NCBI GenBank assembly: GCA_023664865.1
Contig: JAMPEU010000026.1
Location: forward strand, 1 to 35,333
From: Butyrivibrio sp.
GTDB taxonomy: Bacteria > Bacillota > Clostridia > Lachnospirales > Lachnospiraceae
DNA: 35,333 bases
Direction of reading: 5' to 3'
The translations under genes were made by a program, and so were the position numbers. Numbering within the stretch: position 1 is the stretch's first letter; each line of letters begins with the position of its first letter. Below are positions 2,533-31,726 of the stretch, piece by piece. Under the pieces are notes generated by a model. That model had not been told where the DNA came from, did no database searches, and saw only the letters and a program-made list of their open reading frames with translations.

Positions 2533-3030
2533 ATGCTGGAACGTTTTTATCCGGATGTGTATCTGGACTCTGCATATGATATTGATTACGAAACCCTGTA
2601 TAAACAGGGCTATCGGGGAATTATCTTTGACATTGACAATACCCTGGTGCCGCACGGCGCTCCCGCGGACGCAAGAAGCGTGGCGCTTTTTGAGAGGCTG
2701 CGCGCCATCGGCTATGAAAGCATGCTTCTATCCAACAATAAAGAGCTGCGAGTCAAATCGTTCAATGATAAGGTACATTCACGGTATATATATAAGGCTA
2801 ATAAACCGTTTCCGGAAAGCTATCTCAAAGCCATGCAGCAGATGGGTACAACCCCTGAAACTACGCTGTTTGTAGGCGACCAGCTTTTCACCGACGTATG
2901 GGGCGCCAAAAAAGCCGGAATCAGAACTTATCTGACTAAGCCTATCCACCCCAAGGAAGAAATACAGATTGTATTAAAGCGGTATCTGGAAAAAATTGTG
3001 CTATTTTTTTATATGAGGCGTAATCATTAG
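2533..3030 (+). CDS. YqeG family HAD IIIA-type phosphatase
   Basis: A 165-aa HAD-superfamily phosphatase of the YqeG type. Motif I is DIDNTLVPHG (nucleophile D33, general acid D35). Motif II is LLSNN (67-69), motif III the lysine in YKANKPFPE (K91), and motif IV GDQLFTDVWGAKKAG (115-129). These are all the catalytic elements of a Mg-dependent phosphoaspartyl phosphatase. In Firmicutes YqeG often lies next to aroE, as here. Its substrate is not evident. A GGAAGGA ribosome site precedes the ATG by about 12 bp. The TAG stop (3028-3030) is the first edge of a long palindrome that separates it from aroE. Confidence 0.93.
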   Translation: MLERFYPDVYLDSAYDIDYETLYKQGYRGIIFDIDNTLVPHGAPADARSVALFERLRAIGYESMLLSNNKELRVKSFNDKVHSRYIYKANKPFPESYLKAMQQMGTTPETTLFVGDQLFTDVWGAKKAGIRTYLTKPIHPKEEIQIVLKRYLEKIVLFFYMRRNH

Positions 3031-3113
3031 GTTAAGTCTGAATGAACAAAATAAGGGACGACTTACCGCTTTTCAGGCATTGGAGTCCCGTTTTTGTTCA
3101 TTTAGACTTAACC
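3030..3113. repeat. Nested palindrome, family A copy 1 (between yqeG and aroE)
   Basis: An imperfect 84-bp inverted repeat. The left arm ggttaagtctgaatgaac pairs with gttcatttagacttaacc with one G-T pair, then caaaa/ttttg, then an inner GGGAC/GTCCC stem. The loop starts with cgacttaccgcttttcagg (3059-3077). The same 19-mer is in the loops of the elements at 11828-11913 and, inverted, 15543-15624. It starts at the last base of the yqeG stop. There is no U-tract, so it is not a standard terminator. It contains an ATG (3042) in frame with aroE. Confidence 0.9.
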
Positions 3114-3152
3114 GGAGTTGCTTCAAGCGGCAAATATGAAAGGAGTCATGTA

Positions 3153-4016
3153 ATGATTGACGGAAAAACAAGGCTTTGCGGCCTTATCGGCAACCCGGTG
3201 GAACATACTGTGTCGCCGGTTATACATAATACATTGGCGCAGATATACGGACACAATCTTGTCTATGTGCCATTTCTGGTAGATGAGGGAAAAACAGACG
3301 AGGCTGTGAAGGGTGCGTACGCGCTTAATATTCTGGGAATGAACGTAACGGTGCCATATAAAAGCGAAGTAATAAAGAGCCTTGTGGAAGTGGATGAACT
3401 TGCCGCCCGCATCGGCGCGGTCAATACGCTTGTCCGTACAGAAGGCGGTTACAAAGGCTATAATACGGATATGAGCGGCTTACAGCGTGCAATGGAATGT
3501 GAAGGCATCCGTCTTGAAGGCGAAGAAATCATACTGCTGGGTGCAGGCGGCGCGGCGCGGGCGGTAGCATATCTGTGTGCTTCCCGTAAGGCAAAAAAGG
3601 TGTATATGCTGAACCGGACTCTTGATAAGGCGAAAAAGGTCGCAAATGAGGTAAATGAGTCGTTTGGCAATGAAATTATAATGCCTATGCTTTTGTCAGA
3701 CTACCCGCAGCTTCCCGACGGAAAGTTCCTTGCGATACAGGGGACGTCGGTCGGACTTGCGCCAAACGACAATGAAGCCGTGATAGAAGACGAGGCTTTT
3801 TACCGTAGGGTGCATACTGGTTTCGATTTAGTATACAGACCGTTTGCCACGCGTTTTATGAAACTGACGCAGGCGGCGGGCGGCAGGGCGTATAATGGAC
3901 TTAAGATGCTGCTGTACCAGGGCGTAGATGCGTATGAGTTGTGGAATAATGTGACGGTTAGCGATGAAGACGCTGATGCTGTCTATGGGAAAATGAAGGA
4001 GACAATGCAGTTATAA
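3153..4016 (+). CDS. aroE: Shikimate dehydrogenase (NADP+)
   Basis: Reduces 3-dehydroshikimate to shikimate in the cytoplasmic aromatic amino acid pathway. With ATG 3153 the product is 287 aa, the normal length. N-terminal substrate residues are GNPVEHTVSPVIHN; the catalytic lysine is K70 in MNVTVPYKS, with N91 and D106 (YNTDMSG). The NADP-binding fold has GAGGAAR at 130-136 and MLNRT. The start is fixed by AAAGGAG at 3139-3144. The open frame runs a further 37 codons upstream to ATG 3042, but those codons are mostly the palindrome at 3030-3113 and have no family homology. aroK follows 72 bp downstream. Confidence 0.95.
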   Translation: MIDGKTRLCGLIGNPVEHTVSPVIHNTLAQIYGHNLVYVPFLVDEGKTDEAVKGAYALNILGMNVTVPYKSEVIKSLVEVDELAARIGAVNTLVRTEGGYKGYNTDMSGLQRAMECEGIRLEGEEIILLGAGGAARAVAYLCASRKAKKVYMLNRTLDKAKKVANEVNESFGNEIIMPMLLSDYPQLPDGKFLAIQGTSVGLAPNDNEAVIEDEAFYRRVHTGFDLVYRPFATRFMKLTQAAGGRAYNGLKMLLYQGVDAYELWNNVTVSDEDADAVYGKMKETMQL

Positions 4017-4088
4017 TGATAATCTTAACATTACGAGTTTAGGTTAAATGAAGTTTTACAATTATAGAGCGAGGGAGATAACCGGCAT

Positions 4089-4628
4089 ATGGGAAATATT
4101 ATTTTGATCGGTTTTATGGGCTGTGGGAAAAGCACGGTAGGGGTGAAGTTGTCTTATCGTCTGCGCCGCACGATTGAAGATACTGATAAGCTGATAGAGA
4201 AAGAAGAAGGAAGAACGATTTCCGAAATATTTGCGGCTGACGGCGAAGAATATTTCAGGAATCTGGAGACGGAATGTCTAAAGAATATGCGGCAGACAGT
4301 ACATAATCAGATTATATCCGTAGGCGGAGGGCTTCCCATGCGCGAAGAGAACCATAAGCTGTTAAAAGAACTTGGGACGGTCATATACCTGCGCGCAAGT
4401 GCAGATACGATATATGAAAGACTGAAATATGACACAACCAGACCGCTTTTACAAGGTGATAATCCGCAGGAGAAAATACGCACGCTGCTTAAGGGACGCG
4501 CGGCAACTTACGAGCGCGCTGCAGATGTGATAGTGGACGTGGATGATAAGGATTTTGATGCGATATTGGATGAGATTGTAAAATACTTGCAAATTAAGGA
4601 TAACCCGAAAGCAAATAAAATTTTATAA
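4089..4628 (+). CDS. aroK: Shikimate kinase
   Basis: Phosphorylates shikimate at the 3-hydroxyl with ATP, the step after AroE. The 179-aa product has Walker A GFMGCGKST at 8-16 and the DTDxxIE segment as DTDKLIEKEEGRTISEIF (shikimate D residue). It also has FRNLETE, the GGG shikimate loop in SVGGGLPMREEN, the LID arginine region RPLLQGDNPQ, and RAATYERAADVIVDV. A GAGGGAG-like ribosome site lies upstream of ATG 4089. The last genuine housekeeping gene before the AT-rich accessory islet. Confidence 0.95.
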   Translation: MGNIILIGFMGCGKSTVGVKLSYRLRRTIEDTDKLIEKEEGRTISEIFAADGEEYFRNLETECLKNMRQTVHNQIISVGGGLPMREENHKLLKELGTVIYLRASADTIYERLKYDTTRPLLQGDNPQEKIRTLLKGRAATYERAADVIVDVDDKDFDAILDEIVKYLQIKDNPKANKIL

Positions 4629-4938
4629 AAACCCTCTTGCATTATCCCATATTCTATGATATTATAAACGAAATAAAACAAATCTTGACTCTTATACATG
4701 ATAACTGGGATATGTGGTTGTATTATAACATATTAGCATATACAGTTGCATGATTCCGGCAGTTCTGCCAGAGATTCAATTTTGTTTGGCAGGATTGCGG
4801 TAAATGATGGAAACACAGCCTATGATGTGATTTTTCTGTCTTCCAATGCCATAGCTTATTATGGCGGCACTCCTGCAAAATTATAACCAAGAGAAAGGCA
4901 GGGGGATTAAATGGAAGAAGAAACAATACTAAAGACTT
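4629..4938. other. 310-bp gap without a supported gene
   Basis: AT-rich at the aroK side. An ATG at 4911 behind AGGGGG opens a ~36-codon frame overlapping the next gene out of frame; it resembles nothing I know. TTGACT near 4684 has no convincing -10 partner. Nothing here reads as the missing N-terminal part of the PDDEXK_2 gene that follows. No structured RNA or palindrome element was found. Confidence 0.5.
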
Positions 4939-5493
4939 ATGAAGAAAGAAGAAAACAGGCGGGTGCGTTATTACTTGTCGAGCATAGACATGAGCATACT
5001 CGAAAAAGGAAAGCCATATAGTGAATTGCCCGATGTGACACTGGTATACATATCCAAAGGCGATTTCATAGGAGATGAAAGAGGACGTTACAAACCGCCC
5101 AGAAAAGCAGACGGGCAGGACGTTACAATGTCGCTGGACAGTGGACTGCAGGAGATATATTTTAATCTGGAATACTATACGGACGATGCAAAGATAAATG
5201 AACTGCTTGAGTATTTCAAGGACTCGAAGCCGGACTACATAACAGAGAATTTTCCAAGAATAGTGGAGCGTGTAAGATTTTTCAAAGTACAGAAGGAAGG
5301 GGTAAATATTATGTGTGAAATAGCTGACAGAATTAGAAGGGAAGGAGAGCGGGAAGGAATAAGGAAAGGCGAAAATCTGTTTGCCTCGCTGTTAAACCTG
5401 CTCTTTGCCGACGGACGAACAGAAGATGCAAAGAAGGCAGCGGCAGACGTTACAATGAGAAATAAACTCTACAAAGAATACGGAATTGTATGA
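4939..5493 (+). pseudogene. 5'-truncated PDDEXK_2 (Rpn/transposase-type nuclease family) remnant
   Basis: The 184-aa frame resembles the C-terminal two thirds of the PD-(D/E)XK family transposase/Rpn-like proteins common in Lachnospiraceae. It shows RRVRYYLSSIDMSILEKG, YSELPDVTLVYISKGDFIGD, then IYFNLEYYTDD and RVRFFKVQKEGVNIMCEIAD. The charged tail RIRREGEREGIRKGE is typical. Full-length members are usually about 280-330 aa, with the catalytic core N-terminal to this region. That core is absent: the frame is closed by TAA at 4930-4932, just before ATG 4939. I therefore read it as a decayed fragment. The assignment is from memory of the family pattern. Confidence 0.6.
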
Positions 5494-5625
5494 CATTATG
5501 TATGTAAAAACTGGGCGAATGTTTTCATAGCTTAGATACCCAACCGCAAATTTCTTGACAGAAAGATATACGTCATGTAAGATGATTATAATGATTACGT
5601 TGCAGAAACTTGCGAGAATGTGACT

Positions 5626-5660
5626 GGAGAAGAACCTGCGGGAGTCTTCTCCTTTTCTTT
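5626..5660 (+). terminator. Probable Rho-independent terminator after the PDDEXK_2 remnant
   Basis: GGAGAAGA (5626-5633) pairs with TCTTCTCC (5645-5652) across an 11-nt loop, followed by TTTTCTTTCCC. It lies in the 237-bp gap between the remnant and the next small gene, 130 bp past the remnant stop. Beyond it I see only the ribosome site of the next gene. Confidence 0.65.
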
Positions 5661-5730
5661 CCCATTTATCCGCACTAAGCAGAAGGAAATGCCAGATATT
5701 TAGACTAGGTACATCTAAAAGGAGATAGCC

Positions 5731-6192
5731 ATGAAAAAGAAAAAAATCATCCCATTAATAGTTATCGCTGCGGCAGTTATTATTACTGCGTTTTTCCTGA
5801 TTAGAAGCGGATACAAAGATTTATGCAAATATACAGAAAACCTATTAGATATTGAATGGAATAACTGCATTGAATCAGCCGAGGGCAGCGTGGAAGATAA
5901 ATATAATATATCTGAAGAAGAAAGGGCTTTTATTAAATTAAAGGTAAAGAGCGGGTGCGAAGAGACTGTTTCAGATATTTTACAGGAACGATTTAAGCAA
6001 AATATTATGGAACTGCCCGGCTTTTCCATACTCAACTATCAAGGGCATGATTTTGGAACCGAACTTAAAAACAGCGATATTCAAGCCGTTTATTCAAAAT
6101 TCATGGAAGGGAAGGCGGCAAAGACCAGAGAGATAACGATTTATGTAGTTTATAATGAAAATAACCTGATGTATATATATGTGATGGGGTAG
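5731..6192 (+). CDS. Hypothetical membrane-anchored protein
   Basis: I do not recognise this 153-aa protein. It begins MKKKKIIPLIVIAAAVIITAF, a basic start plus one hydrophobic helix (about residues 5-24), without a lipobox cysteine. It is therefore likely anchored in the membrane with the rest outside. The soluble part is acidic, with DIEWNNCIESAEGSVEDKYNIS and a beta-rich end (REITIYVVYNENNLMYIYVM). A strong AAAGGAG lies 6-7 bp before ATG 5731. It is followed 8 bp later by a second protein of the same design, so the two are probably co-transcribed. Codon and base composition are AT-richer than the flanking aro and met genes, suggesting acquired DNA. Confidence 0.7.
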   Translation: MKKKKIIPLIVIAAAVIITAFFLIRSGYKDLCKYTENLLDIEWNNCIESAEGSVEDKYNISEEERAFIKLKVKSGCEETVSDILQERFKQNIMELPGFSILNYQGHDFGTELKNSDIQAVYSKFMEGKAAKTREITIYVVYNENNLMYIYVMG

Positions 6193-6200
6193 AGGGAAAC

Positions 6201-6602: not shown

Positions 6603-6674
6603 AAAGAAAATAGAAAGAACAGACCTTTTTATTAGAGTGGAAGCGGGAATTTTGAATATGTGGAGATAATTGTG

Positions 6675-7094: not shown

Positions 7095-7097
7095 AAC

Positions 7098-7126
7098 TTG
7101 ACACGCCACATGATGTAGGATAGTAT
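7098..7126 (+). promoter_or_regulatory. SigA-type promoter of the methionine importer operon
   Basis: TTGACA (7098-7103), a 17-bp spacer, and TAGTAT (7121-7126). The leader to ATG 7191 would be only about 55-60 nt. That is too short for an S-box or T-box, and no such structure is visible. Confidence 0.8.
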
Positions 7127-7190: not shown

Positions 7191-7976
7191 ATGGACGAAA
7201 AGTTTATAGAGGTATCACAATTATATAAAACCTTCTATAATAAGAAGCAGAAGATAGAGGTTCTAAAGGGCATTGACCTTTCGGTAGAAAAAGGCGAAAT
7301 CTACGGCATTGTGGGATTTAGCGGCGCCGGAAAGTCAACCTTGGTCAGATGCATGAACCGCTTAGAAGAGCCTGACAGCGGCAAGGTCAGAATCGGTGAG
7401 ATGGAGATTACAAGTCTGGGAAAAGCAGCTCTGAATGAACAGCGCAGAAAAATTGGCATGATTTTTCAGCAGTTTAATCTATTTGATTCCATGACGGTAT
7501 CGCAGAATGTTGCATATCCGCTTAAATTAACGGGAATAAACGGCAAAGAAGCGGACGAGCGTGTAGAAGAGATGCTTACGTTGGTAGGGCTTATGGAAAA
7601 AAAGAACGCTTATCCGGGAGAACTTTCCGGTGGGCAGAAACAGAGAGTCGGCATCGCGAGGGCTTTGGCGAACCGCCCTGACGTGCTTTTATCAGACGAA
7701 GCGACAAGCGCATTGGATCCGCAGACTACCCTGTCCGTATTAGACCTTTTGAAAGAAATAAATAAAAAGCTGGGGCTTACCATTATTCTCATTACGCACG
7801 AGTTAGAGGTAATCAAGTACGCCTGTCACAGAATGGCGGTTATGGAAGACGGCAGGCTGCTTGAACAGGGGCTTGTGAAAGATATCTTCATGAATCCACA
7901 GTGCGAGACGGCGAGAAATTTTATCGGCGTATATAATAAATTCAGAAGTGATAAGTGGCAGGAGGAAACGGAATGA
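7191..7976 (+). CDS. metN: Methionine-type ABC importer ATP-binding protein (MetN-like, no NIL domain)
   Basis: The cytoplasmic ATPase of a MetNIQ-type importer for methionine or a related compound. Walker A is GFSGAGKST (42-50); the Q-loop lies in MIFQQFNLFDSMTV; the signature is LSGGQKQRVGIARAL, Walker B VLLSDEATSALDP, and the switch histidine is in ILITHELEV. The FNLFDSMTVSQNVAYPL segment is typical of MetN. At 261 aa it stops after the ATPase domain (FIGVYNKFRSD). Well-studied MetN proteins are about 340 aa, with a C-terminal NIL domain for feedback inhibition by methionine. ATG 7191 is preferred; an in-frame TTG at 7179 extends it by four residues. The stop overlaps metI as ATGA. Confidence 0.85.
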   Translation: MDEKFIEVSQLYKTFYNKKQKIEVLKGIDLSVEKGEIYGIVGFSGAGKSTLVRCMNRLEEPDSGKVRIGEMEITSLGKAALNEQRRKIGMIFQQFNLFDSMTVSQNVAYPLKLTGINGKEADERVEEMLTLVGLMEKKNAYPGELSGGQKQRVGIARALANRPDVLLSDEATSALDPQTTLSVLDLLKEINKKLGLTIILITHELEVIKYACHRMAVMEDGRLLEQGLVKDIFMNPQCETARNFIGVYNKFRSDKWQEETE

Positions 7977-8683
7977 GCCTTTATAAGTATTCTTTTTGGG
8001 AAGTATTAAAGCATTCCTTCAGCGCGGAAGTGTGGGAGAAGGTAATCCCCGCCATAGGCGAAACCATGTATATGGTAGCGGTATCATCGATTTTTGTCCT
8101 GATTTTCGGCATCCTGCTCGGACTGGTTTTAGTTATGACGAGTAAAGAAGGTCTGATGCCCTGCAAGGCAGTACATAGTATTCTGGGGGCTGTCATTAAT
8201 TGTTTCCGTTCGCTGCCACAGGTGATTATCATTATAGTAATGCTTCCGGTGGCAAGGGCGCTCGTGGGGAAATCCTACGGTTCCAACGCCTGTATCATTT
8301 CGCTGATTGCAAGCTGCGTACCGCTTTTTGCGAGGCTGGTTGAGAGCAGTCTGCTTGAGATTGATAAGGGAAAAATTGAGGCGGCAAAAGCTATGGGGAG
8401 CGGTAATGCACGTATCCTGTTTGCCATCATGGTGCCTGAAACGCTGCCGTCGCTGATTCGTGCTTTTACGAATGCGGTGGTAATCGTTATCTCCATGACG
8501 GCGTTGGCAGGGAGCTTTGGAGCCGGTGGAATCGGATATATTGCGGTTACATTCGGTTACACCAGATACCAGCATGACCTTTTATTTGCAACTATCGTCG
8601 TTTTGATTGTGATTGTGCAGGCAGTCCAGCTTGTAGGGGATACAATCTCTAAGATAATTTTAAAGAAGAGGCATTTAATTTGA
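7973..8683 (+). CDS. metI: Methionine-type ABC importer permease (MetI-like)
   Basis: The membrane permease of the importer, 236 aa, the usual size. It has about five hydrophobic segments: AIGETMYMVAVSSIFVLIFG, then PQVIIIIVMLPVARAL, an arm starting NACIISLIASCVPLFARLVE, a region near AFTNAVVIVISMTALAG, and LLFATIVVLIVIVQAVQLVG. The cytoplasmic EAA-type loop, which docks on MetN, reads GKIEAAKAMGSGNARILFAI. The start ATG 7973 overlaps the metN stop (ATGA) and is preceded by AGGAGG at 7961-7966; a GTG at 7955 is in frame but lies upstream of that ribosome site. Two bases after its TGA a 186-bp palindrome begins, separating it from metQ. Confidence 0.93.
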   Translation: MSLYKYSFWEVLKHSFSAEVWEKVIPAIGETMYMVAVSSIFVLIFGILLGLVLVMTSKEGLMPCKAVHSILGAVINCFRSLPQVIIIIVMLPVARALVGKSYGSNACIISLIASCVPLFARLVESSLLEIDKGKIEAAKAMGSGNARILFAIMVPETLPSLIRAFTNAVVIVISMTALAGSFGAGGIGYIAVTFGYTRYQHDLLFATIVVLIVIVQAVQLVGDTISKIILKKRHLI

Positions 8684-8684
8684 C

Positions 8685-8870
8685 GTAACAGTTCAGCCAT
8701 GCAGAAATGAATGTACAAATTGCCTGTGGGAGCTTGCTCACTAAGGGCAACTTGCATATTCATTTCTATAGGGCGGACGCCCGACATGAATAATTTGCCT
8801 GCCAGTCTGTAAATCCTTTGTGCATAATTTATATTCAGGCAAATTATGAATGGCATGGCTGAACTGTTAC
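8685..8870. repeat. Branched palindrome element between metI and metQ
   Basis: The outer stem is gtaacagttcagccatgc (8685-8702) with its exact complement at 8853-8870. Inside are three further hairpins. One runs from 8703 to 8767 (agaaatgaat...attcatttct, then ttgcc/ggcaa, with gtgggagc/gctcac at the tip). A small GGGCG/CGCCC hairpin sits near 8773-8784. A third pairs aataatttgcctg with caggcaaattat. The whole would fold as a four-way junction. The first 14 bases of the outer stem are shared with the element at 13817-14004, which has an unrelated interior. No U-tract. Confidence 0.88.
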
Positions 8871-8935
8871 AATCTGACATTTCTGGCGCTTATGCGTCTT
8901 AAATGAATATACAAGTTCCAAGAGGAGGAAAAGTT

Positions 8936-9766: not shown

Positions 9767-9775
9767 TAAGTAATT

Positions 9776-9908
9776 GTAACCGTTCAGCAGGTCTGCGCAT
9801 TTACTGCGCTGACCGTACGAAAATGTAAATTTTGCAAGCAAAAATCCATCACCGAAGGTGATTTGGAATGGATTTTTGCTCGTAACTGTGAAGGAACTGA
9901 ACAGTTAC
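9776..9908. repeat. Nested palindrome element between convergent metQ and ABC exporter gene
   Basis: The outer stem gtaaccgttcag (9776-9787) pairs with ctgaacagttac (9897-9908) with one mismatch; it is the same outer stem as in the elements at 8685 and 13817. Inside are two hairpins. The first is ggtctgcgca/tgcgctgacc, with a single mismatch. The second is gcaaaaatccat/atggatttttgc, capped by caccgaaggtg. It fills the gap between two convergent stop codons (9766 and 9915), so it may serve as a two-way terminator, though U-tracts are weak. Confidence 0.85.
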
Positions 9909-9914
9909 AAGTAA

Positions 9915-11798
9915 TTATTTAAACAACGCTGCTGCGGTGTCCTTATAATATTGCGCCTGTGCCGACCACATTTGAGCATAGACACCGCAGTCTTTTATAA
10001 GGGCATCGTGGTTTCCGCGTTCGACTATGCAGCCGTTATCAAGCACTGTTATATCGTCGCAGAACCGGCACGAAGACAGCCTGTGCGAAATATATATTGC
10101 TGTGCGCGTTCCCACAATGCTGTTGAACTTAGTGTAGATATCATATTCGGAAATAGGATCAAGCGCTGCGGTAGGCTCGTCAAGAACAATAAATGGCGAG
10201 CCTTTATATATTGCCCTTGCCAGACAGAGTTTCTGCGCTTCGCCGCCGGAAATCTCCACGCCTTTTTCATCGAAATCCTTATACAGGAAGGAGTCCAGAC
10301 CATCGGGCATCTCGTCAAGACGCTGCGAAAATCCCGCGCGGCGTACACATTCTTCTGCTAACGCCCTGTCATATTCCGTATCTGCAGCGACATTTTCACC
10401 AACAGAGAAAGAAAATAGTGCGGAATCCTGAAATACCACTGAAAATAAATCCATGTATTCTTGTAAGTTGTATTTTTTAATATCTACACCGTTAAGCGTG
10501 ATTTCTCCTTCGCTTGCGTCGTAAAGCCTGCATAAGAGCTTGATAAGCGTAGACTTGCCTGAACCGTTCCTGCCTACGAGAGCCATCTTTTCACCTATGC
10601 GCCACTTTAGGTTGATATCCTTAAGCACATAGTTCTCGCTGCCCGGATATTTAAAGTAAACATGCTTAAACTCAAATTCAAACTGGTTATCGTCTCTTTT
10701 TTCCGTGGGGATAGTTCCCTTATACCTGTCGTCCGGAATATCAAGAAAATCAAATACAATCTTATAGAAATCCGCCTGCGTAAGCAGTGATGTCATGGAG
10801 CCTGAAGCCTGTAATATTCCCTCACGGATTTCAGTAAAATACATGGCAAACGCCACTATCTGACCGGGGGACATCATTCCGCCCGCCGCCCTAAGCAGCG
10901 CGAAACCATACATAATAATTGTCATTACAAGCTGGACTGCATTTGCCATATAGTCGGCGCGGTTCATTTTTTTAGTAAGATAATCCCACTTGTCGGTAAA
11001 AACCTTGCCGGAAGCGGCAAAAATGTCAAGCATAAGCTGTTGTTCGCCATAAATACGGATTTCTTTGCCATTGCGGTAATTATATTGCGTTCTGTTAGCA
11101 ATAGAAGAGCCGACACGCTGCGCCTCATGCACATTTGCGTCGGAAAGTCCCTCATGGTTGTAGCGCACGATTATAGGATTGATTACCAGACTTACGATAC
11201 AAACAAGCCCTACGGATATCAGAATCATTGTCAAAAATCCCCACGGAGACTGGATAAAGCCCATGAATCCTTCCGTTACCGTCCGTCCTGAAAATGCGAT
11301 GGGAATTATCAGAATTATGCCGATAAGCGCATTAATGGAGCTGACTACCGTGCTGGAAATCAGGTAAATGAGGTTATTAATTCCGCAATTATTCAGGTAA
11401 TTTCGCGCCTCTTGATATTTGCTCTTTGTGTCCGGATTTTCTGATTTGGCGTAATCCATAGTGAGCAGTTTTTCCCATAACTTTTTGTTGGAAACGCTTT
11501 CATAAGTAAAATTATGAGCGTTTGAGCGCATGAAAATAATCCGTTCCACAATGCTTGTAAAAAGCATTACTCCGCAGACAATCGACGCTCTTATAAGAAG
11601 TTCAGAGGCCGGTTTTGCGCTGGCAACGCCGTCTATAACAAGGCTTGAGAGATATATCCCCGAAAAGATTTTTACTATATCAGGCAAAAGCGAGGCAACA
11701 GCCCTGAAAGTCCTGCCCTTGTCCGCAGCCTCCACAAATTTAAGGCTACGTTTAATAATTATAATTTTTTCCCTAAATGTTAATTTTTTATCGTCCAT
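9915..11798 (-). CDS. ABC exporter half-transporter (fused permease-ATPase), second of a pair
   Basis: A 627-aa type IV ABC exporter half-transporter: six-helix membrane domain (about 1-330) and C-terminal ATPase. Walker A is GRNGSGKST (from about 409), the Q-loop is in SVVFQDSALF, the signature is VEISGGEAQKL (about 515-523), Walker B FIVLDEPTAALDP, and the H-loop YISHRLSS. The start at 11798 (MDDKKLTF) is set by AAAGGAGAT just upstream; the frame continues eight codons further (MKTLKEIS), through the ribosome site itself. It lies downstream of a homologous half-transporter, and the two probably form a heterodimer exporting a peptide or drug-like compound. The substrate is not visible. Separated from its partner by a palindrome at 11828-11913. 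Confidence 0.9.
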   Translation of the reverse strand: MDDKKLTFREKIIIIKRSLKFVEAADKGRTFRAVASLLPDIVKIFSGIYLSSLVIDGVASAKPASELLIRASIVCGVMLFTSIVERIIFMRSNAHNFTYESVSNKKLWEKLLTMDYAKSENPDTKSKYQEARNYLNNCGINNLIYLISSTVVSSINALIGIILIIPIAFSGRTVTEGFMGFIQSPWGFLTMILISVGLVCIVSLVINPIIVRYNHEGLSDANVHEAQRVGSSIANRTQYNYRNGKEIRIYGEQQLMLDIFAASGKVFTDKWDYLTKKMNRADYMANAVQLVMTIIMYGFALLRAAGGMMSPGQIVAFAMYFTEIREGILQASGSMTSLLTQADFYKIVFDFLDIPDDRYKGTIPTEKRDDNQFEFEFKHVYFKYPGSENYVLKDINLKWRIGEKMALVGRNGSGKSTLIKLLCRLYDASEGEITLNGVDIKKYNLQEYMDLFSVVFQDSALFSFSVGENVAADTEYDRALAEECVRRAGFSQRLDEMPDGLDSFLYKDFDEKGVEISGGEAQKLCLARAIYKGSPFIVLDEPTAALDPISEYDIYTKFNSIVGTRTAIYISHRLSSCRFCDDITVLDNGCIVERGNHDALIKDCGVYAQMWSAQAQYYKDTAAALFK

Positions 11799-11827: not shown

Positions 11828-11913
11828 GAGTTTAGTCTAAATGAACAAAATAAGGGGCGACTTACCGCTTTTCAGGCATTGGAGCCCCGTTTTTGTTCAT
11901 TTAGACTAAACTC
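11828..11913. repeat. Nested palindrome, family A copy 2 (between ABC exporter genes)
   Basis: The stem gagtttagtctaaatgaac (11828-11846) pairs perfectly with its complement at 11895-11913. Inside is GGGGC/GCCCC and the loop cgacttaccgcttttcagg (11858-11876), the same as at 3059-3077. Compared with that copy, the inner stem changed from GGGAC/GTCCC to GGGGC/GCCCC, so both sides changed and pairing is kept. It encodes the last 13 residues and stop of the upstream ABC exporter gene. Confidence 0.92.
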
Positions 11914-13725
11914 GTTACAATCAATGCTATTATCATTATAGTAGCTGCTTTGCATATTAAAAAGTTCTGCATATTTTCCGTTTAACTCCATAAGTTCTGC
12001 ATGGGTTCCACATTCGGAAATCATGCCGTCATCTATTAGGATTATCCGGTCGCAGAATCGCGTCGAAGCAAGTCTGTGTGAGATGAAAACGCCGGATTTG
12101 TCCTTTGAAAACCGCGTGTAGTTAAGATACATTTCCTGTTCTGCGATTGCGTCTAAAGCAGCGGTCGGTTCGTCTAAAAGAAGGATGGGCGCGTTTTTAT
12201 ACAAAGCTTTTGCGAGGGCAAGCTTTTGGATTTCCCCGCCTGAAAAGTCAACCGAATCTGCGTATACGCCGCGGGTAAGCTGCGTATGCTCGCATTTCTC
12301 AAGGCTTTGAATTTTATCGTACAGTCCTGCGTTTTTAAGACAGTCATACAACCGCGTCCCGTCATAATCTTTTCTTCCCGTGACATTCTCGCCGATGCTT
12401 GCGGCAAAGGGGGAAATATCCTGAAATACCGCTGAAAAAAGCGTAAAATACTCGTCGCGGTTGTATTCGTTTACAGGTACGCCGTTTAACAGTATCACCC
12501 CTTCGGTAGGTTCATAAAGCCCGCACATTAACTTGATGATGGTGGTTTTGCCAGCACCGTTAAGTCCGACTAAGGCAAGGTTCTCACCCTTATGCAGCGT
12601 AAATGAGAGATTTTTAATCGTAGGCGCATCAGCGCCGAAATAGGTATATGACACGTTCCTAAATTCCAGTTCGCACTGCCCGCTTGGTAAGGGTACGCCT
12701 TTTTGACGGTTGGTTTTATCTTCCATTTCAAGATAATCGCGGACATAACTTATGTTATTGGATATCCACTGGTATCCGGAAAAGTTGTTGAACCATTCGC
12801 TTGTGGCAGCGGAAAGCCGCATAATGGAATTAAAGTACAGTACGAAATCCCCTGCGCCGATGTTTCCTTTTGTCACTAATAGGATTACATATGCGTAAGC
12901 CGCGAAATTGCCTAAGGAATTGATTACTGCAAAGAGCAGGTCGTGTTTAAATTCCCATGAATCCTGTTGCCTGTACCAGTTCATGCGCTCCTTGAAGGCA
13001 CGCGCGAAGCTTTTATCTAAGAGATTCTGCAGATGAAAAATCCGCACGTCTTTTGCCCTTGATACGTCTATGGCAGCGGTTTTGACGTAGTTTAGCTGAC
13101 GCTCGCTGCGCTGCCAGTTATCAGCCTTGTTCCATACCCATGACATTTTGTGGCGGTTTACATAAAAGCAAAGTACGGCAGGAACGGCGACAATCGGCAC
13201 CAGCCATATGTTAAGCATGGATAATATCGCCGAATATGTGAAAAATTCTGCAATATGACGTATACTGCCCCTGATATTGATAGGCGTGTTATACATAGCC
13301 ACTTGAACGCCTTCTAAAGCCTTGTTCAGCTTATCGCCATTCTCAGCGTTCTCATTGTTTTCATAATCTGTGGTCATGCACTTTTCCATTATCAGTCCGT
13401 GGATATGCTGATCGCTTTTGGCGAAGCCGGAGTTATTCATATAACGATGCGCCCCTTCCTTTAAAGCACCAAAGAAAAATTTCATTAAGAATACCGCGCC
13501 GCAGATAAGCAGAATTGTTTTGTCGATTCCGGACAGCGCGAGTTCTACTACATATTTGTTTATATAGGTGTCAGAAAGATTGCGGATAAATAAGCCGATG
13601 GCAAAAATAAAGCAGCAGATAACGATATTTTTATCCGCCTGCCATATTTCGCGCATTGCCCAGATGAGATTGGCCATGATGCCGTATTTATTTCTTTTTT
13701 TGTCATGGTTTGCAGCCTTTGCCAT
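11872..13725 (-). CDS. ABC exporter half-transporter (fused permease-ATPase), first of a pair
   Basis: A 617-aa exporter half-transporter with an N-terminal membrane domain and a C-terminal ATPase. Walker A is GLNGAGKTT (from about 387), Q-loop SAVFQDISPF, signature VDFSGGEIQKLAL (about 493-505), Walker B PILLLDEPTAALD, H-loop FISHRLAS. The signature starts FSGGE rather than LSGGE. The start at 13725 (MAKAANH) follows GGGAGGCGAT; the frame is open eight codons more. The final 13 residues, EFSLNEQKRGSNA, are read from the palindrome at 11828-11913 and are not expected to be conserved. The gene is first of the exporter pair, behind a candidate LytTR-controlled promoter, next to a LytTR/GHKL two-component pair. 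Confidence 0.9.
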   Translation of the reverse strand: MAKAANHDKKRNKYGIMANLIWAMREIWQADKNIVICCFIFAIGLFIRNLSDTYINKYVVELALSGIDKTILLICGAVFLMKFFFGALKEGAHRYMNNSGFAKSDQHIHGLIMEKCMTTDYENNENAENGDKLNKALEGVQVAMYNTPINIRGSIRHIAEFFTYSAILSMLNIWLVPIVAVPAVLCFYVNRHKMSWVWNKADNWQRSERQLNYVKTAAIDVSRAKDVRIFHLQNLLDKSFARAFKERMNWYRQQDSWEFKHDLLFAVINSLGNFAAYAYVILLVTKGNIGAGDFVLYFNSIMRLSAATSEWFNNFSGYQWISNNISYVRDYLEMEDKTNRQKGVPLPSGQCELEFRNVSYTYFGADAPTIKNLSFTLHKGENLALVGLNGAGKTTIIKLMCGLYEPTEGVILLNGVPVNEYNRDEYFTLFSAVFQDISPFAASIGENVTGRKDYDGTRLYDCLKNAGLYDKIQSLEKCEHTQLTRGVYADSVDFSGGEIQKLALAKALYKNAPILLLDEPTAALDAIAEQEMYLNYTRFSKDKSGVFISHRLASTRFCDRIILIDDGMISECGTHAELMELNGKYAELFNMQSSYYNDNSIDCNEFSLNEQKRGSNA

Positions 13726-13782
13726 TGTATCGCCTCCCATGGACAGCATAATATAAAACCGGACGTTTAAGTTTATTTTGTA

Positions 13783-13816: not shown

Positions 13817-14004
13817 GTAACAGTTCAGCCTACAGGCGTATAGACGCATATGCTTCCGTGCAGAGGTCCTTGGAAAACGCCGGTACTTAGTGAAAAAGGC
13901 GCAAAGCGTTTTTTGAACTTAGTACCGCTGCGATTTTCCACGGAGCGAGAGCGTGCCTCAAGGGGAAGCATATGCGTCTATACGCCTGTAGGCTGAACTG
14001 TTAC
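13817..14004. repeat. Nested palindrome, family B copy 1 (between kinase and ABC exporter genes)
   Basis: A perfect 41-bp outer stem (13817-13857 with 13964-14004), starting gtaacagttcagcc. Inside is a second imperfect hairpin whose core, ggaaaacgccggtacttag (13872-13890) and cttagtaccgctgcgatttt (13918-13937), recurs at 27524-27542 (inverted) and 31613-31631. A 13-mer, cggagcgagagcg (13941-13953), is kept on one side only. It ends 3 bp from the kinase stop codon. No U-tract. Confidence 0.93.
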
Positions 14005-15542: not shown

Positions 15543-15624
15543 AATTCAGGTAAAATAAACACACATGGGGTTCCACGCCTGAAAAGCGGTAAGTCGCCCC
15601 ATGTGTGTTTATTTTACCTGAATT
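15543..15624. repeat. Nested palindrome, family A copy 3 (between response regulator and spoIIIAA)
   Basis: A perfect 28-bp stem, starting aattcaggtaaaataaacac, from 15543 to 15570 and from 15597 to 15624. The loop carries cctgaaaagcggtaagtcg (15578-15596), the exact reverse complement of the family A core. The stem sequence is unrelated to the other two family A copies. It lies in the leader of the response-regulator gene (minus strand), upstream of its AAGGAG site. Confidence 0.92.
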
Positions 15625-27410: not shown

Positions 27411-27420
27411 ATGCAGATTG

Positions 27421-27596
27421 TTACTATTCACAGTAGTTGGGGGCATGAACTCATATGTTTTTATGAGTGGTACGCTCTCGCTCCGTGGAAAATCGCAGCG
27501 GTACTAAGCTCGAAAATACCTCGCTAAGTACCGGCGTTTTCCAAGGACCACTTATAAAAACATATGAGTTCATGCCATATAGGCTGTGAATGGTAA
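27421..27596. repeat. Nested palindrome, family B copy 2 (between xseA and xseB)
   Basis: Three layers. The outermost ttactattcacag (27421-27433) pairs with ctgtgaatggtaa (27584-27596), with one G-T. The next, 29 bp starting ggcatgaactcatatg (27442-27470 with 27548-27576), has one mismatch. The inner core is family B in inverted orientation (27524-27542). The second layer is shared with the element at 31579-31726. It begins 11 bp after the xseA stop, inside an operon. No U-tract. Confidence 0.92.
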
Positions 27597-27632
27597 TCAT
27601 GGATTGATTTTATCAAGTAAGAGGGCTAATAC

Positions 27633-27875: not shown

Positions 27876-28767
27876 GGAAGAGTTAAAGGATAGAACGGCA
27901 CATATGGAAGAAGTGCTTGATGCTTTTTGGCCTAAGGAAGAAGGGCTGCAAAGGACGGTTATCGAAGCGATGAATTATTCGGTCATGGCAGGCGGTAAGA
28001 GGCTGCGCCCTATGCTTATGGAAGAAACCTATAAGATGTTTGGCGGCAGCGGAGAGCTGATAGAGCCATTTATGGCGGCTATAGAAATGATTCATAATTA
28101 TTCGCTTGTGCATGACGACCTTCCGGCGATGGATAACGATGAGTATAGACGGGGAAGAAAGACCACGCATATAGTATACGGCGAAGGAATGGCTGTGCTG
28201 GCAGGCGATGCGCTGCTCAATTACGCCTTTGAAACGGCATGTCTTGCCTTTGATAAAGCGAAGACATATGAAGAATACCAAAGAACCGCAGCCGCGCTTA
28301 AAGTGCTTGGCAAGAAAGCCGGAATATACGGAATGATTGGCGGTCAGTGCGTGGACATTGAGTCAGAAGATAAGCAGACGGATTTGACAGAAGAACTTAT
28401 TCTTTTTATACATGAGCATAAGACCGCAGCGCTCATACAGAGCGCAATGATGATAGGCGCCATACTTGCCGAGGCTGATGATGAGCAGGTTAAGGCAGTT
28501 GAAAAATGCGCTTACAATATAGGCATTGCTTTCCAGATTCAGGACGATATCCTTGATGTGACAAGCAGTACGGAAGTCTTGGGCAAGCCTGTAGGGAGCG
28601 ATGAGAAAAATAATAAGATAACATATGTTACTATACACGGAATAGAGCAGTCAAAGGAAAAGACCGCGGAATTATCCGCTGAGGCAATCCATATTCTCGC
28701 TTCCTTTCCACAGAGAAATTTATTTCTGGAAGAGTTGGTCAAAGAACTGATTTACCGTAAGAAATAG
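27856..28767 (+). CDS. ispA: Polyprenyl (farnesyl/geranyl) diphosphate synthase
   Basis: Condenses isopentenyl diphosphate with allylic diphosphates to make FPP or GPP, 303 aa. It has GGKRLRP (47-53), the first aspartate-rich motif DDLPAMD (87-93) with the RRGR following, GQCVDIESE, a KTA motif (EHKTAALI), and the second aspartate-rich motif QIQDDILDV. The start at 27856 is set by GGAG at 27846-27849; ATG 27865 is possible but too distant from it. It overlaps xseB and precedes dxs, matching the isoprenoid block of Clostridia. Confidence 0.95.
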   Translation: MNLMNFEEELKDRTAHMEEVLDAFWPKEEGLQRTVIEAMNYSVMAGGKRLRPMLMEETYKMFGGSGELIEPFMAAIEMIHNYSLVHDDLPAMDNDEYRRGRKTTHIVYGEGMAVLAGDALLNYAFETACLAFDKAKTYEEYQRTAAALKVLGKKAGIYGMIGGQCVDIESEDKQTDLTEELILFIHEHKTAALIQSAMMIGAILAEADDEQVKAVEKCAYNIGIAFQIQDDILDVTSSTEVLGKPVGSDEKNNKITYVTIHGIEQSKEKTAELSAEAIHILASFPQRNLFLEELVKELIYRKK

Positions 28768-28800
28768 GCAGGAATACTGTGAAAGAGTAGAGGAAATACT

Positions 28801-30678
28801 ATGTTCTTGGAGAAAATTGAAAAAACTAATGATATAAAGGAAATCGGTGCAGAGAATTACGATGCGCTTGCGGAAGAAATCAGGCAGTTCCTGATTCAGT
28901 CGATAAGCGTGACAGGCGGACACTTAGGCTCTAACCTTGGAGCTGTGGAGCTGACTATGGCGCTGCATCTTTTCTTAAATCTGCCTGAAGATAAAATTAT
29001 ATGGGACGTAGGGCATCAGTCATATACCCATAAGATTCTGACAGGAAGAAGGGACGGCTTTGCCAATCTGCGCAAATATGGCGGAATAAGCGGATTTCCC
29101 AAGCGTAAAGAGAGCGATTGCGACTGTTTCGATACAGGACACAGCTCCACTTCCATATCCGCGGGGCTTGGCATGGTAAGGGCTAGGGACCTTGAAGGTG
29201 GCAGCAACACGATTGTTTCTGTAATCGGAGACGGCTCCCTTACAGGTGGAATGGCATATGAGGCGCTTAATAATGCGGCAAGACTGGATACGAATTTTAT
29301 TATTGTTCTTAATGATAACAACATGTCGATTTCCGAAAACATAGGCGGCATTTCTAAATATCTGAATAATATCAGAACCACGGATATGTATCTTGATTTA
29401 AAGGAAGGCGTATATAATTCGCTGAATGGCAAATCCAAGTATGCAAATAAGCTGGTATCGCAGATTCGCCGTGTTAAGAGCAGTTTTAAGCAGCTGGTTG
29501 TACCGGGAATGCTATTTGAAGATATGGGTATCACCTATCTTGGACCGGTAGACGGACATGACATTCATGCGATGGTGAGAATGTTCAAGGAAGCAAGAAA
29601 GATAAAGAAAGCTGTAATGGTACATGTTATTACGCAGAAGGGAAAAGGATATGCTCCGGCGGAGAGACACCCTGCCAGATTCCACGGTGCGGAGCCTTTT
29701 GATATAGAGACCGGAATACCGAGCAATCCGCACTCAAAAGCAAGCTATACCGATGTTTTTTCTACGGTTATGTGTAAATTAGGTCAAAGAGACGAAAAGG
29801 TAGTTGCGATTACCGCGGCGATGCCGGACGGAACCGGTTTAAAACGCTTTAGGAATATGTACCCGGAGCGATTTTTCGATGTGGGGATAGCGGAAGAACA
29901 TGCGGTTACTTTCGCGGCGGGGCTTGCAGCGGGCGGACTTAAGCCTATCGTAGCGATATATTCTTCTTTCCTACAAAGGGCTTACGACCAGATACTTCAT
30001 GATGTCTGCATACAGAATCTTCCGGTTGTATTCGCGATTGACAGGGCGGGTCTTGTAGGGAGCGACGGCGAGACGCATCAGGGCATATTTGATTTGTCCT
30101 ACCTTTCTTCCATACCGAACATGCACATAATGGCGCCGAAGAATAAGTGGGAGCTTTCGGATATGATTAAATTTGCAGTCGAGAGTTCAATGCCGATGGC
30201 GGTAAGATATCCGCGAGGGGAAGCTTATGACGGGCTTGCGGATAACAGGACGAAAGTAGAATTTGGGAAGAGTGAAACCATCTATGAAGAAAAGGATATC
30301 GCACTCTTCGCAGTCGGCAGCATGGTAAAAACGGCGGTTGAGGTGCGGAAGAAACTTAAGGAAATGGGATATTCCTGCTCGCTTATAAATGCCAGATTTA
30401 TTAAGCCCATCGACGAGGAAACAGTAGAGAAATCATGCAAAGGACATAAATTAATCGTCACGATGGAAGAGAATGTCCTAAGCGGCGGCTTTGGCGAAAA
30501 AGTCAGGACATATGTGGATTCATTACATACCGAAGCCTCAGTATTGTGCATCGCGCTTCCCGACGAATATGTGGAGCATGGGAATGTCGAACTCTTAAAG
30601 CAGGAAGTCGGCATTGATGCGGACACAGTGGTTAAAAGGATTACGATTGAGTATATCGAAATGACAGGTAAAAAATAA
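28801..30678 (+). CDS. dxs: 1-deoxy-D-xylulose-5-phosphate synthase
   Basis: The first, thiamine-diphosphate-dependent enzyme of the MEP isoprenoid pathway (pyruvate + glyceraldehyde 3-phosphate), 625 aa. It shows GGHLGSNLGAVELT, the GDGSLTGGMAYEALNNAA...NDNNMSIS ThDP/Mg motif, KGKGYAPAE, the pyrimidine-domain FFDVGIAEEHAVTFAAGLA, and DRAGLVGSDGETHQGIFDLS. Start ATG 28801 follows AGAGGAAA. With ispA upstream it forms the isoprenoid pair. Confidence 0.97.
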   Translation: MFLEKIEKTNDIKEIGAENYDALAEEIRQFLIQSISVTGGHLGSNLGAVELTMALHLFLNLPEDKIIWDVGHQSYTHKILTGRRDGFANLRKYGGISGFPKRKESDCDCFDTGHSSTSISAGLGMVRARDLEGGSNTIVSVIGDGSLTGGMAYEALNNAARLDTNFIIVLNDNNMSISENIGGISKYLNNIRTTDMYLDLKEGVYNSLNGKSKYANKLVSQIRRVKSSFKQLVVPGMLFEDMGITYLGPVDGHDIHAMVRMFKEARKIKKAVMVHVITQKGKGYAPAERHPARFHGAEPFDIETGIPSNPHSKASYTDVFSTVMCKLGQRDEKVVAITAAMPDGTGLKRFRNMYPERFFDVGIAEEHAVTFAAGLAAGGLKPIVAIYSSFLQRAYDQILHDVCIQNLPVVFAIDRAGLVGSDGETHQGIFDLSYLSSIPNMHIMAPKNKWELSDMIKFAVESSMPMAVRYPRGEAYDGLADNRTKVEFGKSETIYEEKDIALFAVGSMVKTAVEVRKKLKEMGYSCSLINARFIKPIDEETVEKSCKGHKLIVTMEENVLSGGFGEKVRTYVDSLHTEASVLCIALPDEYVEHGNVELLKQEVGIDADTVVKRITIEYIEMTGKK

Positions 30679-30696
30679 AAAGCGTGGCAATAAATT

Positions 30697-31578
30697 ATGA
30701 AGGAAAGACTGGATATACTGCTCATGAAGCAGGGCTTTGCCGAGTCGAGAGAGAAGGCGAAAGCTATAATAATGACAGGCAGCGTTTTTGTCAACGGACA
30801 GCGTGAAGATAAGGCGGGCGCGGCATTTGATGAAAGCAAGATACATATCGAAGTAAGAGGGGAAACGCCTAAATACTGCAGCAGAGGCGGTCTTAAGCTG
30901 GAGAAAGCGATGGAAGAATTTCATATCAGCTTAAACGGCATGGTGTGCATGGATATCGGGGCATCTACCGGCGGCTTTACGGACTGTATGCTGCAAAGCG
31001 GAGCATCTAAGGTCTATTCCGTAGACGTAGGACACGGACAGCTTGCGTGGAAACTGCGAAACGACGAGCGGGTTGTCTGCATGGAAAAGACGAATTTCCG
31101 CTATATGAAGCCCGAAGATATAACCGATAGGCTGGATTTCGCGTCCATAGACGTTTCTTTTATTTCCCTGACGAAAATACTGATTCCGGCGAGAAATCTT
31201 CTCAAAGAAAAGGGGAAAATTGTCTGCCTTATCAAGCCGCAGTTTGAAGCGGGCAGGGAAAAGGTAGGTAAAAAAGGAGTCGTAAGGGAGCCGGAAATTC
31301 ATGAAGAAGTCATTCGCAAGATTATCACCTATGCGGATATGATAGGATTTGAAGTAAAACAGCTTACCTTTTCACCAATAAAAGGACCAGAAGGCAATAT
31401 CGAATACCTTGTGTATCTTAAGAAACGAGAGCAGATAGAAGAGGATATACTAGCACTTACAGAGGCGGAAGCGGAGAAGATGCTGCAAAATGTGCTTACA
31501 GGTGCAACTAACGCGGCTGAAAAAAATGCTATAAATATTGCAGAAATCGTAGAAACAGCTCACCACAGCCTGAATTGA
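30697..31578 (+). CDS. tlyA: TlyA family rRNA (cytidine-2'-O)-methyltransferase
   Basis: A 293-aa protein with an N-terminal S4 RNA-binding domain (ERLDILLMKQGFAESREKAK, then GSVFVNGQREDKAG) and an FtsJ-type SAM methyltransferase domain (CMDIGASTGGFTDCMLQSGA; VDVGHGQLAWKLR; IDVSFISLTKIL; IKPQFEAGRE). TlyA homologues methylate ribose 2'-OH in rRNA; some were named hemolysins. It carries a ~25-residue C-terminal extension rich in Ala and Glu. Its TGA is followed at once by the palindrome at 31579. Confidence 0.94.
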   Translation: MKERLDILLMKQGFAESREKAKAIIMTGSVFVNGQREDKAGAAFDESKIHIEVRGETPKYCSRGGLKLEKAMEEFHISLNGMVCMDIGASTGGFTDCMLQSGASKVYSVDVGHGQLAWKLRNDERVVCMEKTNFRYMKPEDITDRLDFASIDVSFISLTKILIPARNLLKEKGKIVCLIKPQFEAGREKVGKKGVVREPEIHEEVIRKIITYADMIGFEVKQLTFSPIKGPEGNIEYLVYLKKREQIEEDILALTEAEAEKMLQNVLTGATNAAEKNAINIAEIVETAHHSLN

Positions 31579-31726
31579 GGCATGAACTCATATGCTTACT
31601 CTTGAGGCCCTTGGAAAACGCCGGTACTTAGTGAAAAAGGCGTGTAAGCGGCTTTTGAACTTAGTACCGCTGCGATTTTCCACGGAGCGAGAGCGTGCCT
31701 CAAGAGTAAGCATATGAGTTCATGTC
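31579..31726. repeat. Nested palindrome, family B copy 3 (between tlyA and nadK)
   Basis: A perfect 28-bp stem starting catgaactcatatgcttact (31581-31608 with 31697-31724), sharing its outer half with the copy at 27442. The inner core ggaaaacgccggtacttag (31613-31631) is identical to the 13872-13890 copy, and the one-sided cggagcgagagcg is also present. It begins one base after the tlyA stop codon. No U-tract. Confidence 0.93.

What the first reader, a model, noticed from the sequence alone, without database searches (positions are those of the whole stretch)
3030..31726. Eight modular nested palindromes with exchangeable stems and cores
The window holds eight intergenic palindromes of 82-188 bp (3030-3113, 8685-8870, 9776-9908, 11828-11913, 13817-14004, 15543-15624, 27421-27596, 31579-31726). 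They are mosaic. The gtaacagttcag outer stem occurs around three different interiors (8685, 9776, 13817). The family B core occurs inside two different outer stems. The family A core occurs inside unrelated stems. Exact pairing in such long arms needs recent homogenisation, selection on structure, or active formation. I know of no named family with exchange of nested layers. Candidates are non-autonomous mobile palindromes (REP/MITE-like), RNA 3'-end modules, or a DNA hairpin substrate system.
Basis: partly seen in the sequence, partly recalled or inferred. Interest (0 to 1): 0.78.

Follow-up and report, generated by a model that had tools for sequence, protein, structure and literature searches.

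The report
Mobile hairpins with swappable conserved cores
The eight palindromes belong to families of small, gene-free jumping elements that fold into long hairpins, tend to sit just after genes, and carry a structurally conserved centre that turns up inside different outer arms and often differs between two sister species at the same site.

Summary
All eight palindromes are real and belong to a large hairpin-repeat population: in 0.84 Mb of this genome core B lies at 46 places and core A at 25. The GTAACAGTTCAG outer stem is a transposon end: among 33 candidate elements with such ends, 11 have 8-bp target duplications matching at 7-8 bases, 0.4 expected. Single-ORF IS66-family transposons of the genus have similar ends, as does a published ISBst12-group element with an 8-bp repeat (PMC12898284, passages). 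So families B, C and D are best read as non-autonomous IS66/ISBst12-type MITEs. A second end class, TAGATAATTGCGAAACT, holds cores A and B. Core B is conserved across the genus under different arms: GNRA loop in 26 of 27 aligned sequences, tandem G.A in 26. At eight B sites filled in a sister species, the core differs in six, is inverted in one and unchanged in one. Arms covary. Modularity is supported; a REP/Y1 system is not. What keeps the arms paired, whether the core acts as RNA or single-stranded DNA, and the present mover remain open.

The parts
3030..3113 (+). Family A hairpin (22-bp arms, 95% complementary), core A forward; at the end of the ORF 2533-3030
   Evidence: model R2 hit 3026-3118, 104.8 bits
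8685..8870 (.). Family C element with GTAACAGTTCAG ends (IS66/ISBst12-type) and internal hairpins; six full-length copies in the genome
   Evidence: 8-bp target duplication 7/8
8677..8684 (.). left target duplication AATTTGAC, contains the stop codon of ORF 7955-8683
8871..8878 (.). right target duplication AATCTGAC
9776..9908 (.). Family D element with GTAAC(C/T)GTTCAG ends; two full-length copies plus solo ends and 27-bp derivatives elsewhere
9768..9775 (.). left target duplication AAGTAATT (8/8)
9909..9916 (.). right target duplication AAGTAATT (8/8)
11828..11913 (+). Family A hairpin, core A forward; the stop of the minus-strand ORF 11872-13749 lies inside it
   Evidence: model R2 118.9 bits
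13817..14004 (+). Core B inside 41-bp exact arms that begin with GTAACAGTTCAG; no target duplication left (1/8)
   Evidence: R3 core 13867-13955, 85.5 bits
15543..15624 (-). Core A variant in a different 28-bp stem
   Evidence: R2 77.2 bits on the minus strand
27420..27597 (-). Core B element with GTTACTATTCACAG-type ends; target duplication decayed (4/8)
   Evidence: R3 core 27471-27547, 95.0 bits
31579..31726 (+). Core B hairpin directly after the stop of ORF 30697-31578; right end CTGAGAATAATAAC reaches 31750
   Evidence: R3 core 31608-31697, 84.8 bits

Best explanation
The palindromes are foldback MITEs: short non-coding elements mobilised in trans by IS66-family (ISBst12-type, single-ORF) transposases for families B, C and D, and by an unidentified transposase for the TAGATAATTGCGAAACT-ended elements that hold core A and also core B. 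Outer layer = transposon end (supported for B, C, D). Middle layer = long arms whose sequence drifts but whose pairing is kept (shown). Inner layer = a core with conserved non-Watson-Crick features: tandem G.A, a T.T mismatch and a GNRA-loop side hairpin (shown for core B). Arms most likely stay exact because replication template switching or intra-element conversion copies one arm onto the other, which can also invert cores (inferred; one inversion seen). Cores move between copies by recombination (exchange shown, route inferred). Many copies are old and lose the hairpin centre by deletion (shown). They persist mainly at 3' ends of genes, where a hairpin does least harm (location shown, reason inferred).
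For: 8-bp target duplications: 11 of 33 candidate elements match 7-8 of 8 bases, 0.41 expected from re-dealt flanks; two of these hold core B (C92:15485, C92:224977). A G020 site has a single TATAATTT where G000 has a family C element between two (pair 143). Six of 16 loci fetched with the IS66-like transposase show inverted end pairs of this kind: GTTACAATTCAGT, GTTACTTTTCAC, GTTACTATTCAC/GTTACAATTCAT, GTAACTATTCAG/GTAACTACTCAG. ISDge4 of the ISBst12 group has ends GTGACTACTCAGCA/GTAACTGCTCAGCA and an 8-bp repeat (PMC12898284, passages). Arms: core B alignment 94.1% paired, 188 double-change cells against 46.5 in shuffles; core A 120 against 31.8. Ten sites filled in both species: 22 double paired changes, 14 single, 2 other, 254 unchanged. 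Exchange: at 6 of 8 shared B sites the core or its apical module differs, at 1 it is inverted; 27 of 45 trait pairs show all four combinations. Core B inside TAGATAATTGCGAAACT ends: C158:85137-85368 and 112156-112360; L301. Location: 30 of 40 hairpins in tandem gene gaps are nearer the upstream stop codon, median 21.5 against 88 bases.
Against: No IS66-family transposase was found in this genome or its sister, so the present mover is missing or lost. 22 of the 33 candidates have 6 or fewer matching duplicated bases, and 5 of the 11 good ones had been noticed before the test (8685, 9776, L069, L084, L087). Without fixed ends no duplication signal appeared, and none at the hairpin edges of 30 genus loci bar one 7-base near-match. 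The IS66-like elements show no clear target duplication of their own. 13 of the 22 double arm changes come from two sites (58 and L007A) where the element may have been replaced; without these it is 9 double against 13 single. Template switching is not separated from compensatory selection. Different families occupy the same site in pairs 84 and 136, so whole-element replacement could mimic exchange. The A/E class has no identified partner.
Confidence: 0.68

Rival explanations
1. Selected structured RNA: the hairpins are co-transcribed RNA modules (3' ends, stability or protein-binding elements) kept by selection on RNA folding.
For: GNRA loop in 61 of 62 aligned G000 copies and 26 of 27 genus sequences; G.T over A.C in core helix P2 of G000, 32 to 13, and 25 to 0 at columns 11/101; 3'-end location.
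Against: Core B orientation relative to tandem genes is mixed (10 same, 13 opposite). Across the genus G.T is no commoner than A.C in P2 (7 to 8 among 594 cells), and in the ten inner arm pairs of G000 it is 25 to 26. No Rfam family at gathering.
Confidence: 0.2
2. The core is a folded single-stranded DNA substrate of a recombinase (HUH- or attC-like), so its structure is conserved as DNA.
For: Pyrimidine-GA-purine context on both strands of the tandem G.A and few wobble pairs in the 27 genus sequences; core inversion and exchange at orthologous sites.
Against: Y1_Tnp has 0 matches in G000 and G020; other HUH or integrase families were not searched. Target duplications fit a DDE enzyme at the outer ends. 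No core-less intact palindrome was seen as a landing site; the arm-only G020 sites I read look like asymmetric deletions.
Confidence: 0.15
3. REP/BIME system moved by a REP-associated TnpA (Y1).
For: Intergenic, hairpin-forming, high copy number, located at gene ends.
Against: 0 Y1_Tnp matches in G000 or G020; length 82-188 bp; 8-bp target duplications.
Confidence: 0.04
4. Assembly or binning artefact, or contamination (G000 has 180 contigs and 5.1% estimated contamination).
For: Some copies lie at contig ends, for example C22:12-124 and C11:113981-114057 of 114093.
Against: The same kinds of element at orthologous sites in the separate MAG NALB_7961_5 (G020), and core B in 25 further genus genomes aligned.
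Confidence: 0.01

Closest known systems
IS66 family, ISBst12 group (single ORF), and MITEs derived from it
   Same: Ends of the type GTAACNGTTCAG / GTTACTATTCAC and 8-bp target duplications, as in ISDge4 (PMC12898284, passages)
   Different: No transposase found in this genome; elements are full-length foldbacks with a conserved core. The listings showed no published IS66-derived MITE of this build
BOX elements of streptococci
   Same: Modular; in S. suis the same boxB modules sit inside boxA/C or boxE/F flanks (PMC3049150, passages)
   Different: BOX modules are described as blocks, with boxB in tandem arrays, not concentric layers of one palindrome; no sequence comparison was made here
REP/BIME
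   Same: Intergenic hairpins, mosaic, high copy number
   Different: REPs are 20-40 bp (PMC3733652, listing) and linked to REP-associated tyrosine transposases (PMC2817692, title in listing); here 82-188 bp, target duplications, no Y1 gene found
Template-switch mutation in inverted repeats
   Same: Described outcome is arm homogenisation and spacer inversion (PMC8604942, abstract; PMC8794818, passages), both of which fit what is seen here
   Different: Reported there for yeast coding DNA and rRNA genes, not for exchange of cores between mobile elements

Membership tests
IS66/ISBst12-type MITE (families B, C, D) | Ends shared with an autonomous IS66-family element | tested here: met
   similar 12-14 bp ends on 6 of 16 loci, not identical; ISDge4 ends
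IS66/ISBst12-type MITE (families B, C, D) | 8-bp target site duplication | tested here: met
   11 of 33 candidates at 7-8 of 8 against 0.41 expected; the window's 13817 (1/8) and 27420 (4/8) lack it
IS66/ISBst12-type MITE (families B, C, D) | Short and non-coding | tested here: met
   rows are 27-229 bp; 31 sampled B elements with both neighbours called, 0 overlapping an ORF of 90 aa or more (crude ORF calls)
IS66/ISBst12-type MITE (families B, C, D) | Autonomous partner in the same genome | tested here: not met
   0 matches for PF03050 and for the 578-aa transposase in G000; 9 of 77 genus genomes have the latter. Not required of a MITE, but current mobility is unproven
IS66/ISBst12-type MITE (families A and E) | IS66-type ends | tested here: not met
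   ends TAGATAATTGCGAAACT where ends can be seen; one 9-bp duplication, in G020 C10:32819
REP (TnpA-REP) | Y1 transposase gene in the genome | tested here: not met
   0 matches in G000 and G020; 30 of 77 genus genomes have one
REP (TnpA-REP) | 20-40 bp length | tested here: not met
   82-188 bp
REP (TnpA-REP) | GTAG or CGTC tag at the foot of the hairpin | not tested
   not searched for
Known Rfam RNA family | Covariance-model score above gathering | tested here: not met
   window: 0; six genus loci: only mir-2513, below its gathering score and on both strands
BOX element | boxA/boxC sequence | not tested
   no BOX model was available

The most novel reading that the evidence does not exclude
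Core B is a selfish module in its own right: a folded core that travels between the tips of unrelated foldback transposons, using their ends and transposases for dispersal while being copied from tip to tip by its own structure-dependent recombination. The family would then be a two-level mobile system, a core parasite inside arm-and-end parasites, spread through several genera of one bacterial family.
Probability: 0.2. Interest if true: 0.82.

Novelty: new variant of a known kind. Interest (0 to 1): 0.6.

Why it matters
It offers a dense natural experiment on how long perfect hairpins stay perfect: some 200 core B copies per genome (extrapolated), a sister genome about 90% identical, and orthologous sites that are filled, emptied, inverted or exchanged. 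That makes the template-switching model for paired arms directly testable in bacteria. It also adds a structurally conserved core, with no Rfam match at gathering, that crosses two classes of transposon ends, which the usual origin of MITEs by internal deletion of one IS does not predict.

Tried and rejected
Rejected: IS66 transposase in the own genome (none); Y1/REP transposase (none in G000 or G020); known Rfam family. A 22-base core A pattern has 0 exact matches in the viral contigs. Searching for target duplications without fixing the ends failed: 2 of 58 perfect against 0-4 in shuffled pairings. The idea that 27-bp 'solo' hairpins are minimal transposons was dropped: at pair 147 the two species keep different deletion products inside the same target duplication. 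A clean split 'core evolves as RNA, arms as DNA' from G.T/A.C counts was dropped: full arms are also skewed (B 37 to 22, A 15 to 7) and the genus-level core is not (7 to 8).

Limits: ORFs were called by a crude longest-ORF rule. One search aligned 62 of 63 core B rows (the copy at C92:109714 with an inserted side hairpin left out); one search aligned 39 of 47 family A rows (8 variant, truncated or hairpin-bearing rows left out, among them the window's 15543); one search aligned 27 of 30 genus loci (two near-duplicates and one rich in N left out). Seven wrong-strand rows were dropped from the 70. Genus loci were picked by a model of G000 copies, so their conservation is partly selection. The genus search with R1 (72 of 77 genomes) may include unrelated hairpins at weak scores; homology was read only for the aligned loci. 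The non-genus hits could not be read as sequence. Some of the 33 rows are nested in one another.
Full report
Observation. The eight palindromes exist where stated; five have exact or 97% arms of 23-41 bp, 3030 has 22 bp at 95%, and 8685 and 9776 have 18 and about 12 bp at their ends. A stricter scan of the window plus 0.8 Mb of the same genome gave 59 inverted repeats (63 minus 4 runs of N), 5 of them in the window; one block shuffle gave none. Covariance models place core B at 46 distinct places and core A at 25 in these 835,333 bases (48 and 45 raw matches before opposite-strand echoes are merged). If the sample is typical of the 3.82 Mb, that means about 210 and 115 copies; this is an extrapolation. 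The interiors at 8685 (family C) and 9776 (family D) have 6 and 2 full-length copies.

What the outer layer is. GTAACAGTTCAG and the related GTTACTATTCACAG behave as transposon ends. In 33 candidate elements with both ends (27-229 bp; G000 and sister genome G020; some nested in one another), the 8 bases on either side match at 8 of 8 in 6 and at 7 of 8 in 5; re-dealt flanks give 0.18 and 0.23. Five of these 11 had been noticed before the test. In the window, 9776-9908 has AAGTAATT on both sides and 8685-8870 has AATTTGAC/AATCTGAC; 13817 and 27420 have lost theirs. G020 has one TATAATTT at the site where G000 has a family C element between two (pair 143). Without fixed ends no signal appeared, and the hairpin edges of 30 genus loci gave only one 7-base near-match.

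Which enzyme. The IS66 DDE family has no match in this genome or in G020. A single-ORF IS66-like transposase (NF033517, 131.5 bits, below its 180 cut-off; PF03050, 58.8 bits, above its 23.1) occurs in 9 of 77 genus genomes. Six of the 16 loci fetched show inverted end pairs of the same kind (GTTACAATTCAGT; GTTACTTTTCACACCCACGC; GTTACTATTCAC with GTTACAATTCAT; GTAACTATTCAG with GTAACTACTCAG), but no clear target duplication of their own. Independently, ISDge4, a transposing ISBst12-group element of Deinococcus, has ends GTGACTACTCAGCA and GTAACTGCTCAGCA with an 8-bp repeat (PMC12898284, passages). Families B, C and D are therefore best read as non-autonomous relatives of that group.

A second end class. 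C158:85137-85368 (both ends perfect TAGATAATTGCGAAACT) and C158:112156-112360 (one mismatch each end) hold core B; C103:35925-36067 (3 and 2 mismatches) holds a core A variant. A further species has core B between similar ends (L301). One G020 copy (C10:32819) is flanked by a 9-bp repeat, ATAAATGAA. So each end class holds more than one interior, and core B occurs in both. Many family A copies show no clear outer ends.

The arms. In 62 core B copies the proposed structure is 94.1% paired, with 188 double-change cells against 46.5 in shuffles and at most 35 when partners are slid. In 39 core A copies the figures are 97.8%, 120, 31.8 and 19. At ten sites filled in both G000 and G020 (eight B, two A; genomes roughly 90% identical where compared), 292 arm pairs compare as 254 unchanged, 22 changed on both sides and paired in both species, 14 changed on one side, 2 other. 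Two sites (58 and L007A) give 13 of the 22; without them it is 9 double and 13 single.

The core. Core B is a long helix (P2) with a T.T mismatch and tandem G.A pairs, and a small side hairpin (P3). P3 has a GNRA loop in 61 of 62 aligned G000 copies and in 26 of 27 sequences from 27 genus genomes, G000 and G020 included (GAAA 11, GAGA 9, GCAA 3, GGAA 2, GCGA 1; one GAAG). Tandem G.A is kept in 59 of 62 and 26 of 27, T.T in 61 of 62 and 27 of 27. In the genus set P2 covaries (89 double-change cells against 24.7 shuffled), although one measure, further pair types, does not exceed shuffles (209 of 500). Several arm types in other species show no evident similarity to those of G000 yet are paired. 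The trimmed model R3 finds the core in 9 of 146 genomes drawn from the order, all in the same family, in 5 genera; the hits outside the genus could not be read as sequence. Core A is narrower: 4 of 41 genomes, G000 included. Rfam has no match at gathering (for the window; for six loci).

RNA or single-stranded DNA? Mixed. In G000 G.T exceeds A.C in P2 (32 to 13) and at the junction pair (25 to 0), and the loop variants obey GNRA, as RNA predicts. But the ten inner arm pairs give 25 to 26, full arms 37 to 22 (B) and 15 to 7 (A), and across the genus P2 has 7 G.T and 8 A.C among 594 cells; from general knowledge an RNA helix would carry more wobbles. Copies of one family are related, so these counts are not independent events.

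Exchange and loss between species. 62 comparisons of G000 elements with 1.62 Mb of G020 fall on 54 distinct sites (one search counted 55 because one site was split). G000 has core A or B at 48 of them. G020 has a core at 11 and none at 37; the window's own element at 3030 is one of the 37. In the alignments I read, several coreless sites keep stubs of arms with the centre deleted (pairs 22, 28, 82, 95, 100, 131), others look empty (20, 91, 103, 105). Of the 11, one is family A, nearly identical (21); one (84) holds family A where G000 holds B; one (101) holds core B in different surroundings. In the other eight B sites the core is unchanged in one (70), inverted inside conserved arms in one (113), and different in six (57, 58, 61, 79, 97, 104), five of them swaps between the long and short apical hairpin. 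Site 61 is the clearest: an unusual arm (GGATACATATG) is shared, while the core differs in apical module, a P2 pair and the P3 loop. Within G000, 27 of 45 pairs of core and arm traits show all four combinations at least twice, as recombination among copies would give, though recurrent change can contribute.

Where they sit. Of 40 strong hairpins in tandem gene gaps, 30 are nearer the upstream stop codon than the downstream start (median 21.5 against 88 bases; binomial P 0.002; a few of these hairpins belong to none of the families). Core orientation is mixed for B (10 with, 13 against the genes) and mostly against for A (1 with, 6 against). A palindrome gives a hairpin either way, so mixed orientation fits tolerance at gene ends better than a sense-strand RNA function.

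How it most likely works. Shown: recurrent ends, target duplications, paired drifting arms, a conserved core, in-place differences in core, one in-place inversion, loss by central deletion. Inferred: an IS66/ISBst12-type enzyme supplied the mobility and is now absent; template switching keeps arms exact; exchange between dispersed copies is gene conversion through the shared core. Template switching is described as giving arm homogenisation plus spacer inversion (PMC8604942, abstract; PMC8794818, passages).

Known or new. The mobile kind is known (MITE). Modularity has a precedent in S. suis BOX elements, where boxB modules sit inside two flank types (PMC3049150, passages). What I did not see in the listings is a bacterial foldback MITE family with a structurally conserved core shared by two end classes. 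Those searches cover openly licensed papers only.

Noticed in passing
C158:97014 and C158:87478 (G000), L063 (sister MAG), C158:85168: A hairpin of about 27 bases, CAGATAATTTACGAAGTAAATTTTCTG, is inserted in the right arm of some family A copies in both species, and in opposite orientation inside a core B element: small hairpins nest inside larger ones.
   Followed up: partly
C92:109714, C103:123247, C158:46122, G020 C11 (pair 79): A side hairpin AGACCACT...AGTGGTCT replaces part of helix P2 of core B in some copies, and is present in one species but absent in the other at a shared site.
   Followed up: partly
L035 from 1586 onward: The right end of a family A element (TAAACTCGTGACAGCAAA) is repeated in tandem just downstream.
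   Followed up: no
L077, L078, L081; G020 C2 and C3: 27-base hairpins with 8-bp target duplications look like internal-deletion products of family D, probably through the GTAACTGT direct repeat.
   Followed up: partly
G000 C92:107856, 145021, 192180, 256602: Runs of about 100 N in the contigs score as perfect palindromes in a naive scan and must be removed.
   Followed up: yes
window 3030-3113: The orthologous gap in the sister genome (G020 C33) has no core A, so this window element is variable between species; the alignment itself was not read.
   Followed up: partly
   Followed up: no
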